A DNA stretch of 50,633 nt from Candidatus Mediterraneibacter stercoripullorum (GTDB taxonomy: Bacteria > Bacillota > Clostridia > Lachnospirales > Lachnospiraceae). The stretch lies in assembly GCA_019115765.1 (NCBI GenBank), contig DXCZ01000088.1:1-50633 (forward strand). The letters are read 5' to 3'. The notes beneath the pieces were generated by a model. That model was not told the DNA's origin. It ran no database searches and was given only the letters and a program-made list of their open reading frames with translations. This document shows positions 1,841 to 30,403 of this stretch, piece after piece. Each line of letters begins with the position of its first letter. Position 1 is the stretch's first letter. Position numbers and translations under genes: made by a program.

Positions 1841-2584
1841 ATGAGAAAACCGGTTTTCTTCCGGGTGTTGTTCTACGTGATCGGACTGCTTGTCCTGGCG
1901 CTGGGACTGACCCTGAATACGAAGACAGGGCTGGGCGTATCGCCGATCATATCGGTGGCATACAGCATTTCCGAGATCTTTGACCACAATTTTGGAAACA
2001 TGACACTGGCGCTGTACAGCGTGTTTGTGGTGATAGAGCTTGTGCTTCATATGATCCGAAGCAGAAAATATCGAAAAGAAATAAAACAGGTCGGGGAAGT
2101 GCTGGAGCATGCCGGCAAGACAGATCAGAAGCTGATCTTTCTGATGGATATTCTTCAGATTCCGTTGAGTCTGGTGTATACCCGCTTTCTGAATGTATTT
2201 TCGGCATTGATTCCGGAGTTTTATTCTGACGGAAAGAGCGGTGCAGGTGAGATGGCGGAGCGGGTGATCATTCTGATCATAGCGATCATCCTGACTGGAA
2301 TCGGTGCGGCCATGTCGCTGAACATGCGTATCGTCCCCAATCCGGGAGACGGGATCGTACAGGCCATTGCGGATACGATCCATAAAAGCGTGGGATTTAC
2401 GAAGAATTGTTTTGATCTGACAAATATCACAATCACCCTTGTCCTGAGCTTTGTGTTCGCCGGGCATCTGGTGGGCGTCGGCGTGGGGACAATCCTGGCT
2501 ATGATCGGCGTGGGACGGACCATTGCTGTGTTCAATCATTTTACATATGAGAGGATGAAAGAAATGGCGGGAGTGGAAGAATAG
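1841..2584 (+). CDS. YczE/YitT-type integral membrane protein
   Basis: A 247-residue hydrophobic protein with about five membrane-spanning stretches. The opening FYVIGLLVLALGLTLN followed by TKTGLGVSPI is characteristic of the YczE/YyaS/YitT group. In Bacillus, YczE is linked to processing of secondary-metabolite synthases, but the general function is unknown. A hydrophilic loop rich in Lys and Arg (about residues 72-92) separates the N-terminal pair of helices from the rest. AGGAGG at 1825-1830 supports the ATG at 1841. A shorter paralogue lies at 12431-13087, so the window holds two members of the family. Confidence 0.75.
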   Translation: MRKPVFFRVLFYVIGLLVLALGLTLNTKTGLGVSPIISVAYSISEIFDHNFGNMTLALYSVFVVIELVLHMIRSRKYRKEIKQVGEVLEHAGKTDQKLIFLMDILQIPLSLVYTRFLNVFSALIPEFYSDGKSGAGEMAERVIILIIAIILTGIGAAMSLNMRIVPNPGDGIVQAIADTIHKSVGFTKNCFDLTNITITLVLSFVFAGHLVGVGVGTILAMIGVGRTIAVFNHFTYERMKEMAGVEE

Positions 2585-2590
2585 GAGTTG

Positions 2591-2760
2591 TTGTCTTAGG
2601 GGTCCGGCGTGGAGGCAGCGTACTGCCCCGGCGGCCGCGCTTTCGCTCGGAGCATAGCGCAGCGGACACGTAAAGCCGCACAGGACGCGGCTTAAGTGCC
2701 GGCGCTCTGCTACGGGCCTTCGTGGCAGTATGCTGCCTCCACGCCTGGGCACTCAGACAA
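2591..2760. repeat. 170-bp multi-hairpin palindromic repeat, copy 1
   Basis: The outer arms 2606-2627 and 2724-2745 are complementary over 22 positions (21 Watson-Crick plus one G-T). Weaker pairing continues outward to TTGTCT/AGACAA at the ends. Inside is a GC-rich core, 2625-2727, with nested stems: AGCATAGCGC with GCGCTCTGCT, CGG(A)CAC with GTGCCG, and AAGCCGC with GCGGCTT. The 103-bp core differs at only about 3 positions from a second copy at 30089-30191, while the outer arms are quite different in sequence. It sits just after the YczE-type gene, with no ORF of its own. Confidence 0.85.
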
Positions 2761-2843
2761 GCGGGAACAGAATTGAAAACTGGAAAGTGTACATGAAGGC
2801 AGGTTGCGCCTCTTTTTCAAACGTAGTAAAATGAACCCAGGTT

Positions 2844-2908
2844 TATAAGTATGCGTATAAGTATGAGTATACTTATGTGTATGAGTATACTCATAATTAT
2901 GTGTATAT
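2844..2908. repeat. short-period TATAAGTATG-like repeat
   Basis: A low-complexity run repeats GTAT-rich units of 5-7 bp in both orientations (TATAAGTATGCG, TATAAGTATGAG, TATACTTATGTG, TATGAGTATACTC). It includes an internal palindrome pairing GAGTATAC with GTATACTC. It lies 40-100 bp upstream of the ATPase/nuclease gene at 2947 and so covers its likely promoter area. Copy number may vary between strains. Confidence 0.7.
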
Positions 2909-2946
2909 TTTAGGAAAGGTGCGTTTGGAAGGGAGGCGTTTTTGCA

Positions 2947-4605
2947 GTGAGAAAACCTTTGCCGATCGGCGTTGAGAATTTCAGGGAAATTATAGAAAAA
3001 GAATATTATTATGTTGATAAAACTCTTTTGATCAAGGACCTGATAGATCTTCGGAGCAAGGTGAATCTGTTCACCCGTCCCCGGCGGTTTGGAAAAACTT
3101 TGAATATGAGCATGCTCCGGTACTTTTTCGAAAAGAATGACGGCAGCAGGGAGTTGTTTGCCGGGAAGAAGATCATGGGAGCGGGGGAACGGTATATATC
3201 TGAGGTGGGACGATATCCTGTGATCAGCATATCTATGAAGTCCATGAAACAGGCAGATTATAAAAGTGCTTTTTATTGTCTGAAAGAAGAAATGGCGCGG
3301 GAATTTGAGCGACATTCAGCGGTGGCTGAAAAGTTAAATTCTGAAGAAAAACGTAATAAATATAATCGGTTCATTGACAGGACTGCAGATCCGGAAGAGT
3401 ACCTTACTGCTCTTCAGTTTCTGTCGGAGTGTATGAAAAATGAATGTGGGACGGGAGCGGTCATCCTGATAGATGAATACGACGTCCCTCTTGAAAATGC
3501 CTTTTTTAATGGCTTTTACAGGGAAATGGTGTCACTGGTCCGTTCTTTGTTTGAATCAGCACTTAAGACAAATGACGCTCTGGAGTTTGCTGTGGTTACA
3601 GGATGTCTGCGGATCAGTAAGGAGTCAATCTTTACCGGATTAAACAACCTCGCCATTATCTCCATTCTGGACAGCTCTTATGCGGAGCATTTTGGTTTCA
3701 CCCAGGAGGAAGTTGACCAGATGCTTGCGTATTATGGGCTGGAAGATAAGCGGGAGACTGTGCGGCAGTGGTATGACGGTTACAGATTCGGGCAGACAGA
3801 AGTGTATAACCCCTGGAGTCTTATCAATTATGTGAATTCTTTTTATAAGAATGATAATGCCTTGCCAAGACCCTATTGGTCCAATACCAGTTCCAACAGT
3901 ATTGTGCGTACTCTTGTGGATCGTGCGGATCTGTCGGTAAAGCAGGAGATAGAGTCGTTGATCGAAGGGGGGACGATCATAAAACCCATTCATGAGGACA
4001 TCACATATGAGGACATGGATTCTACTCAGGACAATCTGTGGAATTTCCTGTTTTTTACTGGATATCTGAAGAAGATCAGCGAACGACTGGAAGGCGAAAC
4101 GATCTATGTGGAGATGGCGGTGCCGAACAGTGAAGTGAGGTATATATACAAGAATTCTGTTTTACAGTGGTTTGAAAAGAAAACGGAGAAAAAGGATCTG
4201 TCTCCGCTTTATGAGAGCATCCTGAACGGCGACCGGGAGAAAATGGCGGAGATCCTGTCGGAGAATCTGATGGAGACGATCAGTTTTTATGATTATCAGG
4301 AGAGTTATTATCACGGATTCCTTGCCGGGATGTTGAAGAATATAGGCAATTATATCGTTTTATCAAACCGCGAGGCGGGAAATGGAAGACCGGATATCAT
4401 CCTGAAGTATCCAAGTGTCAGGGGGAAGGCTGTGATCCTTGAGATTAAAGTGGCGAAGACGTACCAGGATCTGGAGTTAAAATGCGATGAGGCGCTGAAA
4501 CAGATCGAGGATCAGAAGTATGAGGAACCGCTGCGACAGGAAGGATACAGTGATATCCTGAAATACGGGGTCGCTTTTTACAGAAAGGAATGTATGGTGA
4601 AGTAA
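2947..4605 (+). CDS. AAA-like ATPase fused to PD-(D/E)XK nuclease domain
   Basis: This 552-residue protein starts with GTG, with GGGAGG about 11 bases upstream. Residues 1-55 hold the P-loop-like sequence RPRRFGKT (44-51), and the Walker B-like segment ILIDEYD lies near residue 175. The C-terminal part carries GRPDIIL and AVILEIKV, the pattern of a PD-(D/E)XK nuclease fold. This order is that of the widespread clostridial and Bacteroides AAA-ATPase_like plus PDDEXK_9 family, often present in many copies per genome and of unknown role; mobile or defence-like behaviour has been suggested. It is preceded by a multi-hairpin repeat and a short-period repeat. The ATG of mazG overlaps its stop. Confidence 0.85.
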   Translation: MRKPLPIGVENFREIIEKEYYYVDKTLLIKDLIDLRSKVNLFTRPRRFGKTLNMSMLRYFFEKNDGSRELFAGKKIMGAGERYISEVGRYPVISISMKSMKQADYKSAFYCLKEEMAREFERHSAVAEKLNSEEKRNKYNRFIDRTADPEEYLTALQFLSECMKNECGTGAVILIDEYDVPLENAFFNGFYREMVSLVRSLFESALKTNDALEFAVVTGCLRISKESIFTGLNNLAIISILDSSYAEHFGFTQEEVDQMLAYYGLEDKRETVRQWYDGYRFGQTEVYNPWSLINYVNSFYKNDNALPRPYWSNTSSNSIVRTLVDRADLSVKQEIESLIEGGTIIKPIHEDITYEDMDSTQDNLWNFLFFTGYLKKISERLEGETIYVEMAVPNSEVRYIYKNSVLQWFEKKTEKKDLSPLYESILNGDREKMAEILSENLMETISFYDYQESYYHGFLAGMLKNIGNYIVLSNREAGNGRPDIILKYPSVRGKAVILEIKVAKTYQDLELKCDEALKQIEDQKYEEPLRQEGYSDILKYGVAFYRKECMVK

Positions 4606-10795: not shown

Positions 10796-10829
10796 TCTTT
10801 CCCATAAGGGCATAAAACATAAGAAATGG

Positions 10830-10860
10830 GGTCCGGCACGTGAGATGCCGGGCCTTTTTT
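10830..10860 (+). terminator. hsp20 terminator
   Basis: GGTCCGGCA at 10830-10838 pairs with TGCCGGGCC at 10845-10853, followed by six or more T. An identical structure recurs at 12282-12312 inside the right repeat. Confidence 0.9.
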
Positions 10861-10908
10861 CGTAGAAAAGGGACAGGGCAAAATTCAATTTGGGACACAC
10901 TGAATTTC

Positions 10909-10951
10909 AATTGGGGACGTAGCAAAATCGGATTTTACTACGTCCCCAATT
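10909..10951. repeat. REP-like palindrome (second copy at 12361-12403)
   Basis: A 43-nt imperfect palindrome with 14-bp arms starting AATTGGGGACGTAG and an inner AAAATC/GATTTT stem. The preceding GGGACACACTGAATTT stretch together with GGGGAC arms resembles REP elements associated with IS200-like (RAYT) transposases, from memory. No transposase is present in the window. Confidence 0.65.
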
Positions 10952-11044
10952 GATTGATGTTTTTATCTGGGCATCCCATGAATTATCAATTTATGTGAAG
11001 ACAACGCAAAAATTAATATTGTCATATGGATAGTTGCAGAAAAA

Positions 11045-11182: not shown

Positions 11183-12244
11183 ATGGAAAAATATTTGATG
11201 CCATATCAGGAAATTATTACGGATATTAAAAATATTATTTCTTCCGGCCGGGAGATGGCCTACGGCGCTTCCAATAAAGCGATGATTCTCACATATTGGA
11301 ACATTGGAAAACGAATTGTAGAGCAGGAACAAGGAGGAAAAGAGCGTGCGGAATATGGTAAGGGTCTCATTTCTGCATTATCAGAGACTTTAACACAAGA
11401 GTTTGGCCAAAATTATTCAAAGAGAAATCTTCACTATTACGTGAAATTTTATCAGTACTTTTCTGATGAGCAGATTGTGAACGCATGCGTTCACAATCTT
11501 AATTGGACGAAGATCAGGAGTCTTCTTCGTGTTACGGATGAAGATGCCCGTTATTGGTATATGAAAGAAGCTGTTAGTGAGGGCTGGAGTTCCAGAACGT
11601 TAGATCGAAATATCAGCACTCAATATTACTATCGACTTTTACAGGCACCAAAAAAAGAAGATGTGATTGAAGAAATGAAGCAGAAAACTGCAGAATACCA
11701 GAAAAACCAGTTTGAGTTAATTAAGAGTCCGGTTATTGCGGAATTTCTCGGTTTTAAGACGGAGGATTCATATCTGGAAGGAGATTTGGAATCTTCAATT
11801 CTTTCGCATATCCGTGATTTCTTGATGGAAATGGGGAGAGGATTTGCTTTTGTCGCAAGACAACAGCACATTATTACAGAAACATCGGATTATTTTCTTG
11901 ATCTTGTTTTTTACAATATTGAGTTGAAATGTTATGTGCTGATTGATCTGAAGATGGGAAAAATAACTCATCAGGATGTGGGGCAGATTGATATGTATGT
12001 GCGTATGTACGATGACCTAAAGCGCGGTCAGGGGGATAATCCGACTATTGGAATCCTTTTATGTTCAGAAACGGATGAAGATATTGCCAGATATTCGGTA
12101 CTCCACGATAATGACCGTCTGTTTATGTCAAAATATCTGACGTATCTGCCAACAAAAGAGCAGTTAAGGAATGAGATTGAGCGGCAAAAAGAAATCTTTT
12201 ATATGCAGCATCCAACTCTGCAAGATAAAGAGGATAAAAGATAA
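11183..12244 (+). CDS. DUF1016 (YhcG-like) PD-(D/E)XK nuclease family protein
   Basis: A 353-residue protein with the two-part layout of YhcG/DUF1016 proteins. The N-terminal helical region has AMILTYWNIGKRIVEQEQ, GLISALSETLTQEFG and SKRNLHYYVKFYQYF. The C-terminal region has the nuclease-like core DYFLDLVFYN, CYVLIDLKMGKITHQDVGQIDMYV. These proteins are probable DNA-processing nucleases found with mobile and defence genes; exact roles are not known. The ATG at 11183 follows GAGGTGA. The gene is AT-richer than its neighbours and is bounded by 159-bp direct repeats, indicating it arrived or was rearranged as a unit. A 28-bp perfect palindrome lies within the coding region. Confidence 0.85.
   Translation: MEKYLMPYQEIITDIKNIISSGREMAYGASNKAMILTYWNIGKRIVEQEQGGKERAEYGKGLISALSETLTQEFGQNYSKRNLHYYVKFYQYFSDEQIVNACVHNLNWTKIRSLLRVTDEDARYWYMKEAVSEGWSSRTLDRNISTQYYYRLLQAPKKEDVIEEMKQKTAEYQKNQFELIKSPVIAEFLGFKTEDSYLEGDLESSILSHIRDFLMEMGRGFAFVARQQHIITETSDYFLDLVFYNIELKCYVLIDLKMGKITHQDVGQIDMYVRMYDDLKRGQGDNPTIGILLCSETDEDIARYSVLHDNDRLFMSKYLTYLPTKEQLRNEIERQKEIFYMQHPTLQDKEDKR
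11472..11499. repeat. 28-bp perfect palindrome within the DUF1016 gene
   Basis: AGATTGTGAACGCA is followed directly by its exact reverse complement, with no spacer. It encodes part of the segment EQIVNACVHNLNW. The half-site TTGTGA/TCACAA also occurs upstream of the gene. Confidence 0.9.
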
Positions 12245-12247
12245 AAT

Positions 12248-12406
12248 TCTTTCCCATAAGGGCATAAAACATAAGAAATGGGGTCCGGCACGTAAGATGC
12301 CGGGCCTTTTTTCGTAGAAAAGGGACAGGGCAAAATTCAATTTGGGACACACTGAATTTCAATTGGGGACGTAGCAAAATCGGATTTTACTACGTCCCCA
12401 ATTGAT
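12248..12406. repeat. 159-bp direct repeat, right copy
   Basis: Matches 10796-10954 at 158 of 159 positions and begins 4 bp after the DUF1016 stop codon. It carries the second terminator copy (12282-12312) and palindrome (12361-12403). Its right end abuts a TATAAT-like box at 12408-12413 in front of the next gene. Confidence 0.95.
12282..12312 (+). terminator. terminator of the DUF1016 gene
   Basis: Same GGTCCGGCA/TGCCGGGCC stem and T run as the hsp20 terminator, present because of the 159-bp duplication. Confidence 0.88.
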
Positions 12407-13324: not shown

Positions 13325-13409
13325 TAAAAATCTTGAAAACGTGATAAAAAGGCTGTATAAAAATCTTGAAAACGTGATAGAATAACTATATAAAAATCTT
13401 GAAAACGTG
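13325..13409. repeat. three direct repeats at exact 33-bp period
   Basis: TAAAAATCTTGAAAACGTG occurs at 13325, 13358 and 13391. The first two copies continue with ATA. The third runs into GGAGGG, the ribosome site of the next gene. The 33-bp period equals about three helical turns, so bound proteins would face the same side. Each unit also contains a TATAAAAAT-like stretch that could act as a -10 region. Confidence 0.9.
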
Positions 13410-13421
13410 GAGGGAACAAGT

Positions 13422-14774
13422 TTGAAAAGAAAAATATACGATAAGTTCCTTGAATGGAAGCGTGAAGGTGCAGGAAAAACAGCTCTCTTGATCGATGGCG
13501 CGAGACGTGTCGGAAAAAGCTATATGGCAGAAGCGTTTGCAAGAGCTGAATACAAGTCTTATATAATGATTGATTTCAATAACACTCCGAATGAAGTGAA
13601 GGAGTTGTTTTATACTTATCTGAATGATCTGGATAACTTTTTTATGTATTTGTCGGCATTTTATAATGTGAAGCTCTATAAGCATGATTCTCTGATCATT
13701 TTTGATGAGGTACAGATGTTCCCGAGGGCAAGGGCGGCAATAAAATATCTGGTAGCTGACGGACGTTATGATTATATGGAAACAGGCTCCCTTCTTTCTA
13801 TAAAAAGAAATGTGCAGGATATAGTGATACCGTCAGAAGAGCGGCATATACGGATGTATCCCATGGATTTTGAAGAATTCCTGTGGGCTGTTGGAAACCA
13901 GACTATGATGCCTTTTATCGCAGCATGTTTTGAAAAGAAGCAGCCGTTGGGGCAGGCGCTTCACAGAAAGGCAATGGACTATTTCCGGCAGTATATGATT
14001 GTAGGGGGAATGCCGCAGGCAGTTGCCGAATATTCAGAATCCAGAGATTTTGACAGGGTGGATCGGATCAAACGGGATATACTGACACTTTATCGGGCAG
14101 ATGTTTCAAAATACGCGGAAGGATATGAAAGAAAGGTAGAAAGTATTTTTGATGAGATCCCGGCCCAACTGAGCAGACATGAGAAAAAATTCCGGCTTGC
14201 GTCTATAAGCCGGGAAGCAAGGCTGAGAGAATATGAGGATGCTTTTGCCTGGCTGGATGATGCCATGATCATCAACATCTGCTATAATTCCACAGAACCA
14301 AATGTCGGTCTGCGTATGAATATGGACAGAATGACGATGAAATGTTATATGGCGGATACGGGGCTGCTGATCAGCCATGCGTTTGACGAGAACGGTCTGG
14401 TATCGGAGGAAATATACAGGAAGCTTCTGTTTGATAAGTTGGAGATCAATAAAGGGATGATCCTGGAAAATATTGTCGCCCAGATGCTGACCGCATCAGG
14501 ACATAAGCTTTATTTTTACTCTAATCCGTCAAGAGAAGACTCCGAGGCGAGGATGGAGATAGACTTTTTGGTTTCCAAGAGTAAAGTGACGAGCCGACAT
14601 AATATCTCTCCAATAGAAGTGAAGTCGGGAAGTAATTATACTATAAGTTCTCTTAACAAGTTCCGCAGAAAATACAAGGAGCAGATGAATACCGCGTATG
14701 TGATCCACAAAAATGACTTGAGGACGGAGGATGAGATTGTTTATCTCCCTGCATATATGGTTCCCTGTCTGTAG
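13422..14774 (+). CDS. AAA ATPase with DUF4143 / PD-(D/E)XK C-terminus
   Basis: A 450-residue protein, probably starting at TTG 13422, seven bases after GGAGGG. A GTG at 13407 is an in-frame alternative but lies within the ribosome site. The P-loop GARRVGKS (residues 26-33) and the Walker B-like segment LIIFDEVQ mark the ATPase. A middle region with HIRMYPMDFEEFLWA and YMIVGGMPQAV is typical of the DUF4143 ATPase group. The C-terminus has MEIDFLVSK and ISPIEVKSG, the nuclease-like core. Such genes occur as solitary multicopy elements in gut bacteria; function unknown. An 8-bp hairpin with a TCCG loop (14795-14814) follows the stop. Confidence 0.85.
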   Translation: MKRKIYDKFLEWKREGAGKTALLIDGARRVGKSYMAEAFARAEYKSYIMIDFNNTPNEVKELFYTYLNDLDNFFMYLSAFYNVKLYKHDSLIIFDEVQMFPRARAAIKYLVADGRYDYMETGSLLSIKRNVQDIVIPSEERHIRMYPMDFEEFLWAVGNQTMMPFIAACFEKKQPLGQALHRKAMDYFRQYMIVGGMPQAVAEYSESRDFDRVDRIKRDILTLYRADVSKYAEGYERKVESIFDEIPAQLSRHEKKFRLASISREARLREYEDAFAWLDDAMIINICYNSTEPNVGLRMNMDRMTMKCYMADTGLLISHAFDENGLVSEEIYRKLLFDKLEINKGMILENIVAQMLTASGHKLYFYSNPSREDSEARMEIDFLVSKSKVTSRHNISPIEVKSGSNYTISSLNKFRRKYKEQMNTAYVIHKNDLRTEDEIVYLPAYMVPCL

Positions 14775-29677: not shown

Positions 29678-30039
29678 TGGCTGCAATTCATTATGTTGAA
29701 CTGGACAGAACAATTAAGAAGAATCTGAAAGAAAAGAAATATTCCTCAAAAGAGCTGGGGCGGATCTATGAGAAACTGAAGCGTGATCAGGATAACAGAT
29801 GTACGGGATTTAGAAGAGCTGCCGTTACCGTATTTGTATGCATTATCGTCGTAAATCTCCTGATGCTTGCCACAGAGGCGGGCGGAGCGGCGATGCTGAT
29901 CAGCCTTATCTTCACACTGGTTATGGGATGCGGAGTGCTGGGTATTTCCTGGATCCTGACCATAGGACTCCTGAAAATGCAGTTCAATAGAGCGATTGAG
30001 CAGTACTATCCGGAGTTTATGGGGGTATACAGGCTTTGA
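29677..30039 (+). CDS. small membrane protein, unknown
   Basis: This 120-residue protein has a hydrophilic N-terminal helix (LDRTIKKNLKEKKYSSKELGRIYEKLKRDQDNR). Two membrane spans follow, at about residues 46-66 and 70-95. The ATG at 29677 shares its A with the TAA of the EF-Tu-domain-like gene, so the two are likely translated together. No family is recognised. The multi-hairpin repeat copy 2 begins about 20 bp after its stop. Confidence 0.6.
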   Translation: MAAIHYVELDRTIKKNLKEKKYSSKELGRIYEKLKRDQDNRCTGFRRAAVTVFVCIIVVNLLMLATEAGGAAMLISLIFTLVMGCGVLGISWILTIGLLKMQFNRAIEQYYPEFMGVYRL

Positions 30040-30057
30040 GGGGGAGTGCTGAGTTTT

Positions 30058-30221
30058 TCTCGGACGTCCGCCGCGAAGGAGCTGTGTTGCCCCGGCGGCC
30101 GCGCTTTCGCTCGGAGCAGAGCGCAGCGGACACGTAAAGCCGCAAAGGACGCGGCTTAAGTGCCGGCGTTCTGCTACGGGCCTTCGTGGCAACACAGCTC
30201 CTTCACGGCTGGGTACGGAGA
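30058..30221. repeat. multi-hairpin palindromic repeat, copy 2
   Basis: The core 30089-30191 (103 bp) matches 2625-2727 at all but about 3 positions. The outer arms 30071-30091 and 30188-30208 pair over 21 positions with one mismatch, but their sequence (CCGCGAAGGAGCTGTG...) differs from copy 1 (GGCGTGGAGGCAGCG...). In the core, one stem changes from AGCATAGCGC/GCGCTCTGCT to AGCAGAGCGC/GCGTTCTGCT, which keeps or improves the pairing. It lies after a membrane-protein operon. Confidence 0.85.
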
Positions 30222-30403
30222 CAGAACTGAACAGCTAACTGTAAGGTTGCGTTTCAGCGGAAAAGTATATATAAGTGGAAAAGAATATAAAAGGATACAA
30301 AAAGAATATAAATCCCTGATACACTGAAAACAGAAAGAAAAGATCCGGAGCAGACGGATCGAAGAACGGGATGCGAAACAGAATGCACATCGGAGGGGCG
30401 GAT

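What the first reader, a model, noticed from the sequence alone, without database searches (positions are those of the whole stretch)
2591..2760. Two copies of a multi-hairpin element share a core but have different, still self-complementary, outer arms
Copy 1 (2591-2760) and copy 2 (30058-30221) share a 103-bp GC-rich core with about 3 differences. The outer 21-22-bp arms are unrelated in sequence between copies yet complementary within each copy. Core changes also preserve pairing (AGCATAGCGC/GCGCTCTGCT versus AGCAGAGCGC/GCGTTCTGCT). Covariation in the arms implies that structure rather than arm sequence is kept. It could be a mobile element that inserted into pre-existing palindromes, a structured RNA, or a hairpin-DNA recombination substrate. 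Both copies lie just after stop codons of membrane-protein genes.
Basis: seen in the sequence. Interest (0 to 1): 0.8.

Follow-up and report, generated by a model that had tools for sequence, protein, structure and literature searches.

The report
Jumping DNA hairpin in gut bacteria
The two repeats belong to a large family of mobile hairpin-forming elements scattered next to gene ends in one family of gut bacteria, and their two arms change together as if the DNA itself, not an RNA copy, has to fold.

Summary
Both copies belong to a ~189-nt family (called R1 here). The window's genome has 47 full-length copies and about a dozen shorter ones. Matches occur in 43 of 58 genus genomes and 84 of 397 family genomes. 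A class-wide search gave 11 of 391, all 11 in the same family. No match in phage or plasmid records, no exact-core match in viral contigs, and no Rfam family reaches threshold.

Arms covary strongly: 42 of 47 pairs have both-side changes across 42 chosen copies. Many loop positions are nearly invariant. G·U pairs are rare and no commoner than A·C mismatches (61 to 57). SRP RNA of the same bacterial family gives 119 to 8, the T-box leader beside the ileS copies 33 to 2. That favours Watson-Crick pairing of DNA over RNA folding.

A sister species has contiguous sites without R1 for 5 of 11 tested copies; two of these lie in hairpins. Best reading: a non-autonomous mobile DNA-hairpin element, REPIN/MITE-like, enzyme unknown. 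RAYT genes were tested and are not near it. An inverted pair lies upstream of ileS in 19 species.

The parts
2579..2773 (+). R1 copy 1, whole element (model 2582-2770 plus about 3 nt each side, the usual extent in other copies)
2606..2627 (+). R1 copy 1, 5' arm (variable, pairs with 2724-2745)
   Evidence: sequence; fold; pairing
2628..2723 (+). R1 copy 1, conserved three-way-junction core (mini-hairpin GC-TTTC-GC, internal loops, apical loop)
2724..2745 (+). R1 copy 1, 3' arm
30043..30237 (+). R1 copy 2, whole element (model 30046-30234 plus about 3 nt each side); same site filled in the sister species
30070..30091 (+). R1 copy 2, 5' arm
30092..30187 (+). R1 copy 2, conserved core
30188..30209 (+). 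R1 copy 2, 3' arm

Best explanation
R1 is a non-autonomous mobile DNA element of Lachnospiraceae that must form a DNA hairpin (single-stranded or cruciform) to be mobilised. An enzyme acting in trans is proposed to recognise the long arm plus the conserved asymmetric core, and to place the element at gene ends, sometimes at existing hairpins. Shown: a dispersed family; imperfect inverted ends (like TTACTGTTCA...TGAACAGTAA); a length too short for a transposase; filled and empty sites between two species; Watson-Crick covariation with no excess of G·U over A·C; near-invariant loop positions. Inferred: the DNA hairpin is the recognised form; a trans-acting recombinase exists; hairpins are a target. 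At ileS an inverted pair is found in 19 species and may have acquired a local role (inferred).
For: Copy number and spread. Covariation: A1, 24 of 57 pairs and 121 cells with both-side change against 13.1 and 44.1 in shuffles; A4, 42 of 47 pairs and 491 cells against 34.3 and 149.9. DNA-type pairing, G·U to A·C with columns mainly G·U left out: 42:36 (own genome), 61:57 (family-wide), 5:18 and 28:23 (ileS pair, R1 sense); RNA controls 33:2 (T-box, same loci) and 119:8 (SRP, 30 genera). Mobility: sites without R1 spanned by one alignment in G042 for L013, L010, L004, L030, L005; the L013 site is also without R1 in G003, G043 and G051. Hairpins: the L013 and L030 empty sites fold at -14.0 and -13.5 kcal/mol across the junction. 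Position: in 20 of 45 G000 copies the left end is within 20 nt of the stop codon of a same-strand gene; in 6 the right end is within 20 nt of a convergent stop.
Against: No enzyme was found. RAYT-like genes have no R1 nearby. The composite end motif CTAAACAGCC has 12 matches in the own genome; the ~620 nt read beside 7 of them show no coding element, which does not exclude a longer one. Three of five empty sites fold weakly (-2.6 to -6.2) and no background control for hairpins at gene ends was run. The empty sites are not base-precise: identities 76-92%, with up to about 30 nt unaligned at the junction. No consistent target duplication. Copies lacking parts of the core exist. One core pair is G·T in all 30 own-genome copies. 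The sense-orientation bias (20 to 6) would also fit an RNA-level effect. Family-wide copies were found with models that reward this core.
Confidence: 0.5

Rival explanations
1. A palindromic MITE-like repeat whose arms are kept complementary by template switching or gene conversion between arms or copies, with no selection for a hairpin as such.
For: Explains Watson-Crick-only covariation and the lack of strand bias; the mechanism is proposed for stems of RNA genes (PMC8794818, passages read). Some shared sites hold very different R1 variants in the two species although their flanks are about 92% identical (L065/L202: 14 double and 7 single pair changes; L222/L217: 11 and 9), which looks like replacement of whole elements.
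Against: Such correction should erase asymmetric bulges and internal loops, yet these hold many of the invariant positions across genera. Core columns average 96% identity against 83-85% in the arms among own-genome copies, which suggests selection on the core.
Confidence: 0.25
2. A structured RNA: a 3'-UTR or leader element, or a dispersed small RNA acting as folded RNA.
For: Covariation with conserved loops is the usual sign of RNA. Copies often sit just after stop codons, more often in sense (20 to 6), and in the ileS leader next to a T-box.
Against: G·U pairs are about as common as A·C mismatches in R1, but about 15 times commoner in the T-box and SRP controls. In the ileS leader one copy is sense and the other antisense. 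No Rfam match reaches threshold; only weak hits below threshold, mostly to generic hairpin models.
Confidence: 0.15
3. A REPIN or REP moved by a RAYT (tyrosine transposase).
For: REPINs are extragenic hairpins with compensatory changes (PMC3116915, passages read). Long Y1 genes of RAYT type (label recalled) occur in 37 of 58 genus genomes, and R1 also occurs as inverted pairs.
Against: None of 20 long-Y1 loci contains R1 at E<=1. In three of the four scanned for inverted repeats, GGGACGTAG palindromes are present instead. R1 lacks a short GTAG- or CGTC-tagged unit.
Confidence: 0.05
4. Ordinary transcription terminators that look alike.
For: Position after stop codons; GC-rich hairpin.
Against: No U-tract follows either window copy; 96% core identity across 30 sites; recent empty sites; three-way junction.
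Confidence: 0.03

Closest known systems
REPIN / REP elements with RAYT (PMC3116915; passages read)
   Same: High-copy, extragenic, hairpin with compensatory changes, no own gene, inverted doublets
   Different: R1 is ~189 nt with a conserved three-way-junction core; no R1 in 20 long-Y1 loci tested; no GTAG tag
MITEs and palindromic repeats such as ERIC, NEMIS/Correia and RUP (recalled; small mobile repeats reviewed in PMC2229807, search listing only)
   Same: Short inverted ends, imperfect palindrome, intergenic, filled and empty sites
   Different: No parent transposon or consistent target duplication found; a conserved non-palindromic core kept in many genera of one family
Integron attC sites and IS200/IS605 end hairpins (recalled)
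   Same: Folded DNA recognised by structure plus extrahelical bases, arm sequence free to vary
   Different: No integron integrase or R boxes sought here; R1 is longer and appears to be itself the mobile unit
Candidate structured RNAs of human microbiomes (PMC8040213; passages read)
   Same: Covarying stem, intergenic, some palindromic candidates there
   Different: R1 shows no excess of G·U and is mobile; whether it is one of the 3161 listed candidates was not checked (supplements not readable here)

Membership tests
REPIN/REP with RAYT | RAYT gene flanked by copies of the repeat | tested here: not met
   0 R1 hits (model R2) at E<=1 in 20 long-Y1 loci of about 3-4 kb; other palindromes in 3 of the 4 loci scanned
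REPIN/REP with RAYT | Short REP unit (20-40 bp) with GTAG or CGTC tag | tested here: not met
   R1 ends are like TTACTGTTCA...TGAACAGTAA; size and tags from the title and abstract of PMC3733652 (search listing)
MITE | Inverted ends, short length, no ORF | tested here: met
   Imperfect inverted ends and about 195 nt; mechanical ORFs that cross the window copies (e.g. 1685-2752 and 29746-30195, minus) run antisense into the neighbouring gene
MITE | Target-site duplication | tested here: inconclusive
   33 of 67 copies used: direct repeats of >=6 nt at 5 against 0.96 expected with 14-nt flanks (mean length 0 of 1000 permutations as high); not significant with 20-nt flanks (397 of 1000)
MITE | Autonomous partner with the same ends | tested here: inconclusive
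   12 CTAAACAGCC sites in an assembly rated 89% complete; about 620 nt read beside 7 of them, one of which lies in a gene; no coding element seen
MITE | Presence/absence at orthologous sites | tested here: met
   5 of 11 tested G000 sites are spanned by one alignment and lack R1 in G042
Structured cis-regulatory RNA / Rfam family | Match above gathering score | tested here: not met
   0 matches for the window; sub-threshold hits only in E-value mode for copy 1
Structured cis-regulatory RNA / Rfam family | Strand-specific pairing with G·U tolerance | tested here: not met
Integron attC | Tyrosine integrase IntI and R-box half sites | not tested
   No search made
Group II intron, IS200/IS605 or IS110 derivative | Derived from a known mobile element end | tested here: inconclusive
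   No Rfam intron match in the window or in one composite; IS110 not searched; IS200-like TnpA genes exist in the genus but were not compared with R1 positions

The most novel reading that the evidence does not exclude
Lachnospiraceae carry an undescribed hairpin-DNA recombination system. Its substrate is a ~140-195-nt folded DNA with a conserved three-way junction and extrahelical loops, its targets include hairpins at gene ends, and its enzyme is unknown. One inverted pair has been domesticated between the T-box and the start codon of ileS.
Probability: 0.3. Interest if true: 0.82.

Novelty: new variant of a known kind. Interest (0 to 1): 0.62.

Why it matters
Covariation is normally read as proof of functional RNA. 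R1 looks like a case where strong covariation with conserved loops is kept at the DNA level, and the ratio of G·U pairs to A·C mismatches separates it from two RNA controls. That test could be applied to other candidate structured RNAs of gut bacteria. If R1 is a folded-DNA substrate, an unknown recombinase shapes gene ends in a common family of gut bacteria.

Tried and rejected
RAYT as mobiliser: long Y1 genes (246-309 aa) occur in 37 of 58 genus genomes, but none of 20 fetched loci contains R1. Presence/absence was loosely associated (long Y1 in 31 of 43 R1-positive and 6 of 15 R1-negative genomes, counted by eye; partial genes not counted); I do not rely on it.

Phage, plasmid or viral origin: no match (exact core only for viral contigs). 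Known RNA family: none at threshold. Larger transposon: a ~600-nt composite of R1 plus further hairpins, ends TGGCTGTTTAG...CTAAACAGCCA; in the one scanned, no ORF lying wholly inside exceeds 120 aa, and ORFs there are mechanical.

In-print check: searches listed no paper that I recognised as describing this element; I opened five papers in all (PMC8040213 by DOI, before it appeared in a listing). PMC8794818, PMC3116915, PMC2267715 and PMC8040213 were read only as found passages; in PMC3733652 the five taxon terms tried had no occurrence.

Possible bias: family-wide copies were found with a model that rewards the core. R1 was built from the best 30 of 40 BLAST hits; A4 is 42 hand-picked copies. 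Mafft misalignment inflates 'other' mismatches in the A4 arms. My gene caller is crude codon usage. With mainly-G·U columns kept, the ileS counts are G·U 24 to A·C 18 and 45 to 23, and the T-box 115 to 2. In the flank test 34 of 67 copies were dropped (composites, nested copies, orthologous duplicates). SRP used the best 30 of 56 matching genomes.

Full report
1. Observation. The two repeats are real and fold far better than shuffled sequence (-113.9 and -111.7 kcal/mol, z -7.0 and -7.9). Between the two copies 8 of 22 arm pairs changed on both sides and stay Watson-Crick. They belong to a family, R1. A BLAST of the core found 40 copies in the window's own genome (71 candidates, 40 scored, 40 matches). 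A covariance model (R1, from 30 of these) found 47 full-length copies and about a dozen shorter ones, on both strands and on many contigs (150 of 865 candidates scored; hits on the reverse strand of the same palindrome are not counted).

2. Distribution. 43 of 58 genus genomes have R1, with 1 to 45 matches (45 candidates scored per genome). In the family, 84 of 397 genomes match (73 of 334 genera; strict filters and 6 candidates scored, so a lower bound). With a second model from 42 diverse copies (R2), 11 of 391 genomes of the class match, all 11 in the same family; of the 16 same-family genomes shown, 11 match. One relative, G042, has contig lengths equal to those of the Mediterraneibacter MAG BRZ_HT bin23. 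There is no match in phage or plasmid records and none to the exact core pattern in viral contigs. No Rfam family reaches its threshold.

3. Anatomy. Ends are like TTACTGTTCA...TGAACAGTAA; homology between non-orthologous simple copies typically stops about 3 nt beyond the 189-nt model. Inside lie an outer helix, a variable ~20-bp arm and a three-way junction with a 2-bp mini-hairpin. Many loop positions are near-invariant (around ACGYAGCGG, the UAA internal loops and the AAA-rich apical loop, which a few copies extend). Among 30 own-genome copies the core averages 96% column identity, the arms 83 and 85%, the ends 72 and 75%. Ten shortened copies were read. In at least seven copies R1 is the first hairpin of a ~600-nt composite with further hairpins and ends TGGCTGTTTAG...CTAAACAGCCA, and in L006, L009 and L014 (the same site as L248) it seems, by eye, to sit inside the stem of that composite's large hairpin.

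4. Covariation. Own genome: 24 of 57 pairs show both-side changes (shuffled mean 13.1, 0 of 500 as high), and slid partners give 6-9. Family-wide: 42 of 47 pairs (shuffled 34.3) and 491 cells against 149.9; slid partners give 29-31 pairs and 117-173 cells.

5. RNA or DNA? A G·U pair is tolerated in RNA; on the other strand it is an A·C mismatch. With columns whose commonest pair is G·U left out, G·U to A·C counts are 42:36 (own genome, 30 copies), 61:57 (family-wide, 42 copies), 18:12 (its core helices), and 5:18 and 28:23 (the two ileS copies, 19 species each, read in R1 sense). RNA controls: T-box leader at the same ileS loci 33:2 (15 of 19 loci where its start was found by string match), SRP RNA of 30 genera of the same family 119:8. 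With those columns kept the ileS figures are 24:18 and 45:23 and the T-box 115:2. So pairing is kept as Watson-Crick without clear preference for either strand. I read this as DNA-level constraint or DNA-level correction, not RNA folding. The conserved asymmetric loops argue that correction alone is not enough.

6. ileS. Of 26 distinct loci examined, 19 genomes have an inverted pair (sense copy, then antisense copy) between a T-box-like leader and the ileS start codon, one (G036) has a single copy beside ileS, and six are not at ileS or have no hit. The T-box match was made in one locus (61 bits, below Rfam's gathering score). G003 has only these two R1 matches. On the ileS-sense strand A·C exceeds G·U in the first copy (18 to 5) and about equals it in the second (28 to 23), so there is no sign of RNA-level selection on that transcript.

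7. Mobility. Joined flanks of 11 own-genome copies were searched in G000 and G042. Five are spanned by one alignment without R1 in G042: L013, L010, L004, L030, L005 (identities 76-92%; junctions not base-precise). L018's site holds a different hairpin module there, and L019's holds an R1 remnant. L002 and L025 matched on one flank only; L028 and L072 found no match. Of the G042 copies in the query, L204 lacks R1 in G000 together with about 125 nt of flank, and L203, L205 and the half-covered L208 gave only a partial flank match in G000. For L013 three further species have alignments across the site without R1 (65-67% identity), so insertion in the window's lineage is the simpler reading. The G042 site of L013 is a strong hairpin whose apex R1 appears to replace, and the L030 site is also a hairpin; the other three fold weakly, and no background control was run. 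With 14-nt flanks both direct and inverted repeats are mildly enriched; with 20-nt flanks only inverted ones. Several shared sites carry strongly different R1 variants in the two species.

8. The window copies. Copy 2 is at a site that is filled in G042 (97% over 850 nt, three uncompensated changes in the element). Copy 1 is not: 24 other loci carrying relatives of the upstream gene contain no R1 at E<=0.01, and the downstream sequence differs, so no clean empty site is available for copy 1.

9. Context. In G000, of 45 copies (43 with both neighbours callable; the ileS pair not included), the left end is within 20 nt of a same-strand stop codon in 20 and the right end within 20 nt of a convergent stop in 6 (one copy has both); 6 lie between divergent genes. 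In G042, 8 and 0 of 22; some of these are orthologous to G000 copies.

10. Verdict. A real, widespread mobile hairpin family that I did not find described in my searches. I file it as REPIN/MITE-like in how it works, not as a member of either: the RAYT test failed, and the MITE tests for parent and duplication are inconclusive. The enzyme is the missing part.

Noticed in passing
window 10796-10954 and 12248-12406: Two 159-nt repeats (99% identical) with a GGGGACGTAG palindrome flank a YhcG/DUF1016 nuclease gene (11183-12244). Similar GGGACGTAG palindromes occur beside RAYT-like genes in three of four loci scanned, so this looks like a true REP family.
   Followed up: partly
L341 (G000:C121), L340 (G000:C108) and 18 other loci: RAYT-like long Y1 transposase genes of 246-309 aa, one or two per genome, in 37 of 58 genus genomes (counted by eye).
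   Followed up: partly
L210 2002-2610, L206, L008: A ~600-nt composite of several hairpins; three examples of 612-624 nt fold at about -350 kcal/mol. It has a k-turn-like internal loop (label recalled), and L008 is a diverged variant with a similar fold.
   Followed up: partly
window 13325-13423: Three tandem 33-nt repeats (TAAAAATCTTGAAAACGTGATA...) just upstream of and reaching into the start of an AAA/DUF4143 ORF (13407-14774).
   Followed up: no
window 2847-2910: AT-rich inverted repeat (GTATAAGTATGAGTATAC-like) between R1 copy 1 and an AAA-ATPase/PDDEXK_9 gene (2947-4605); DNA matches to this gene's start occur in many genus genomes and at two more places in this one.
   Followed up: no
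G167:C21:12391-12947: Three R1 copies in direct tandem in another genus of the family.
   Followed up: no
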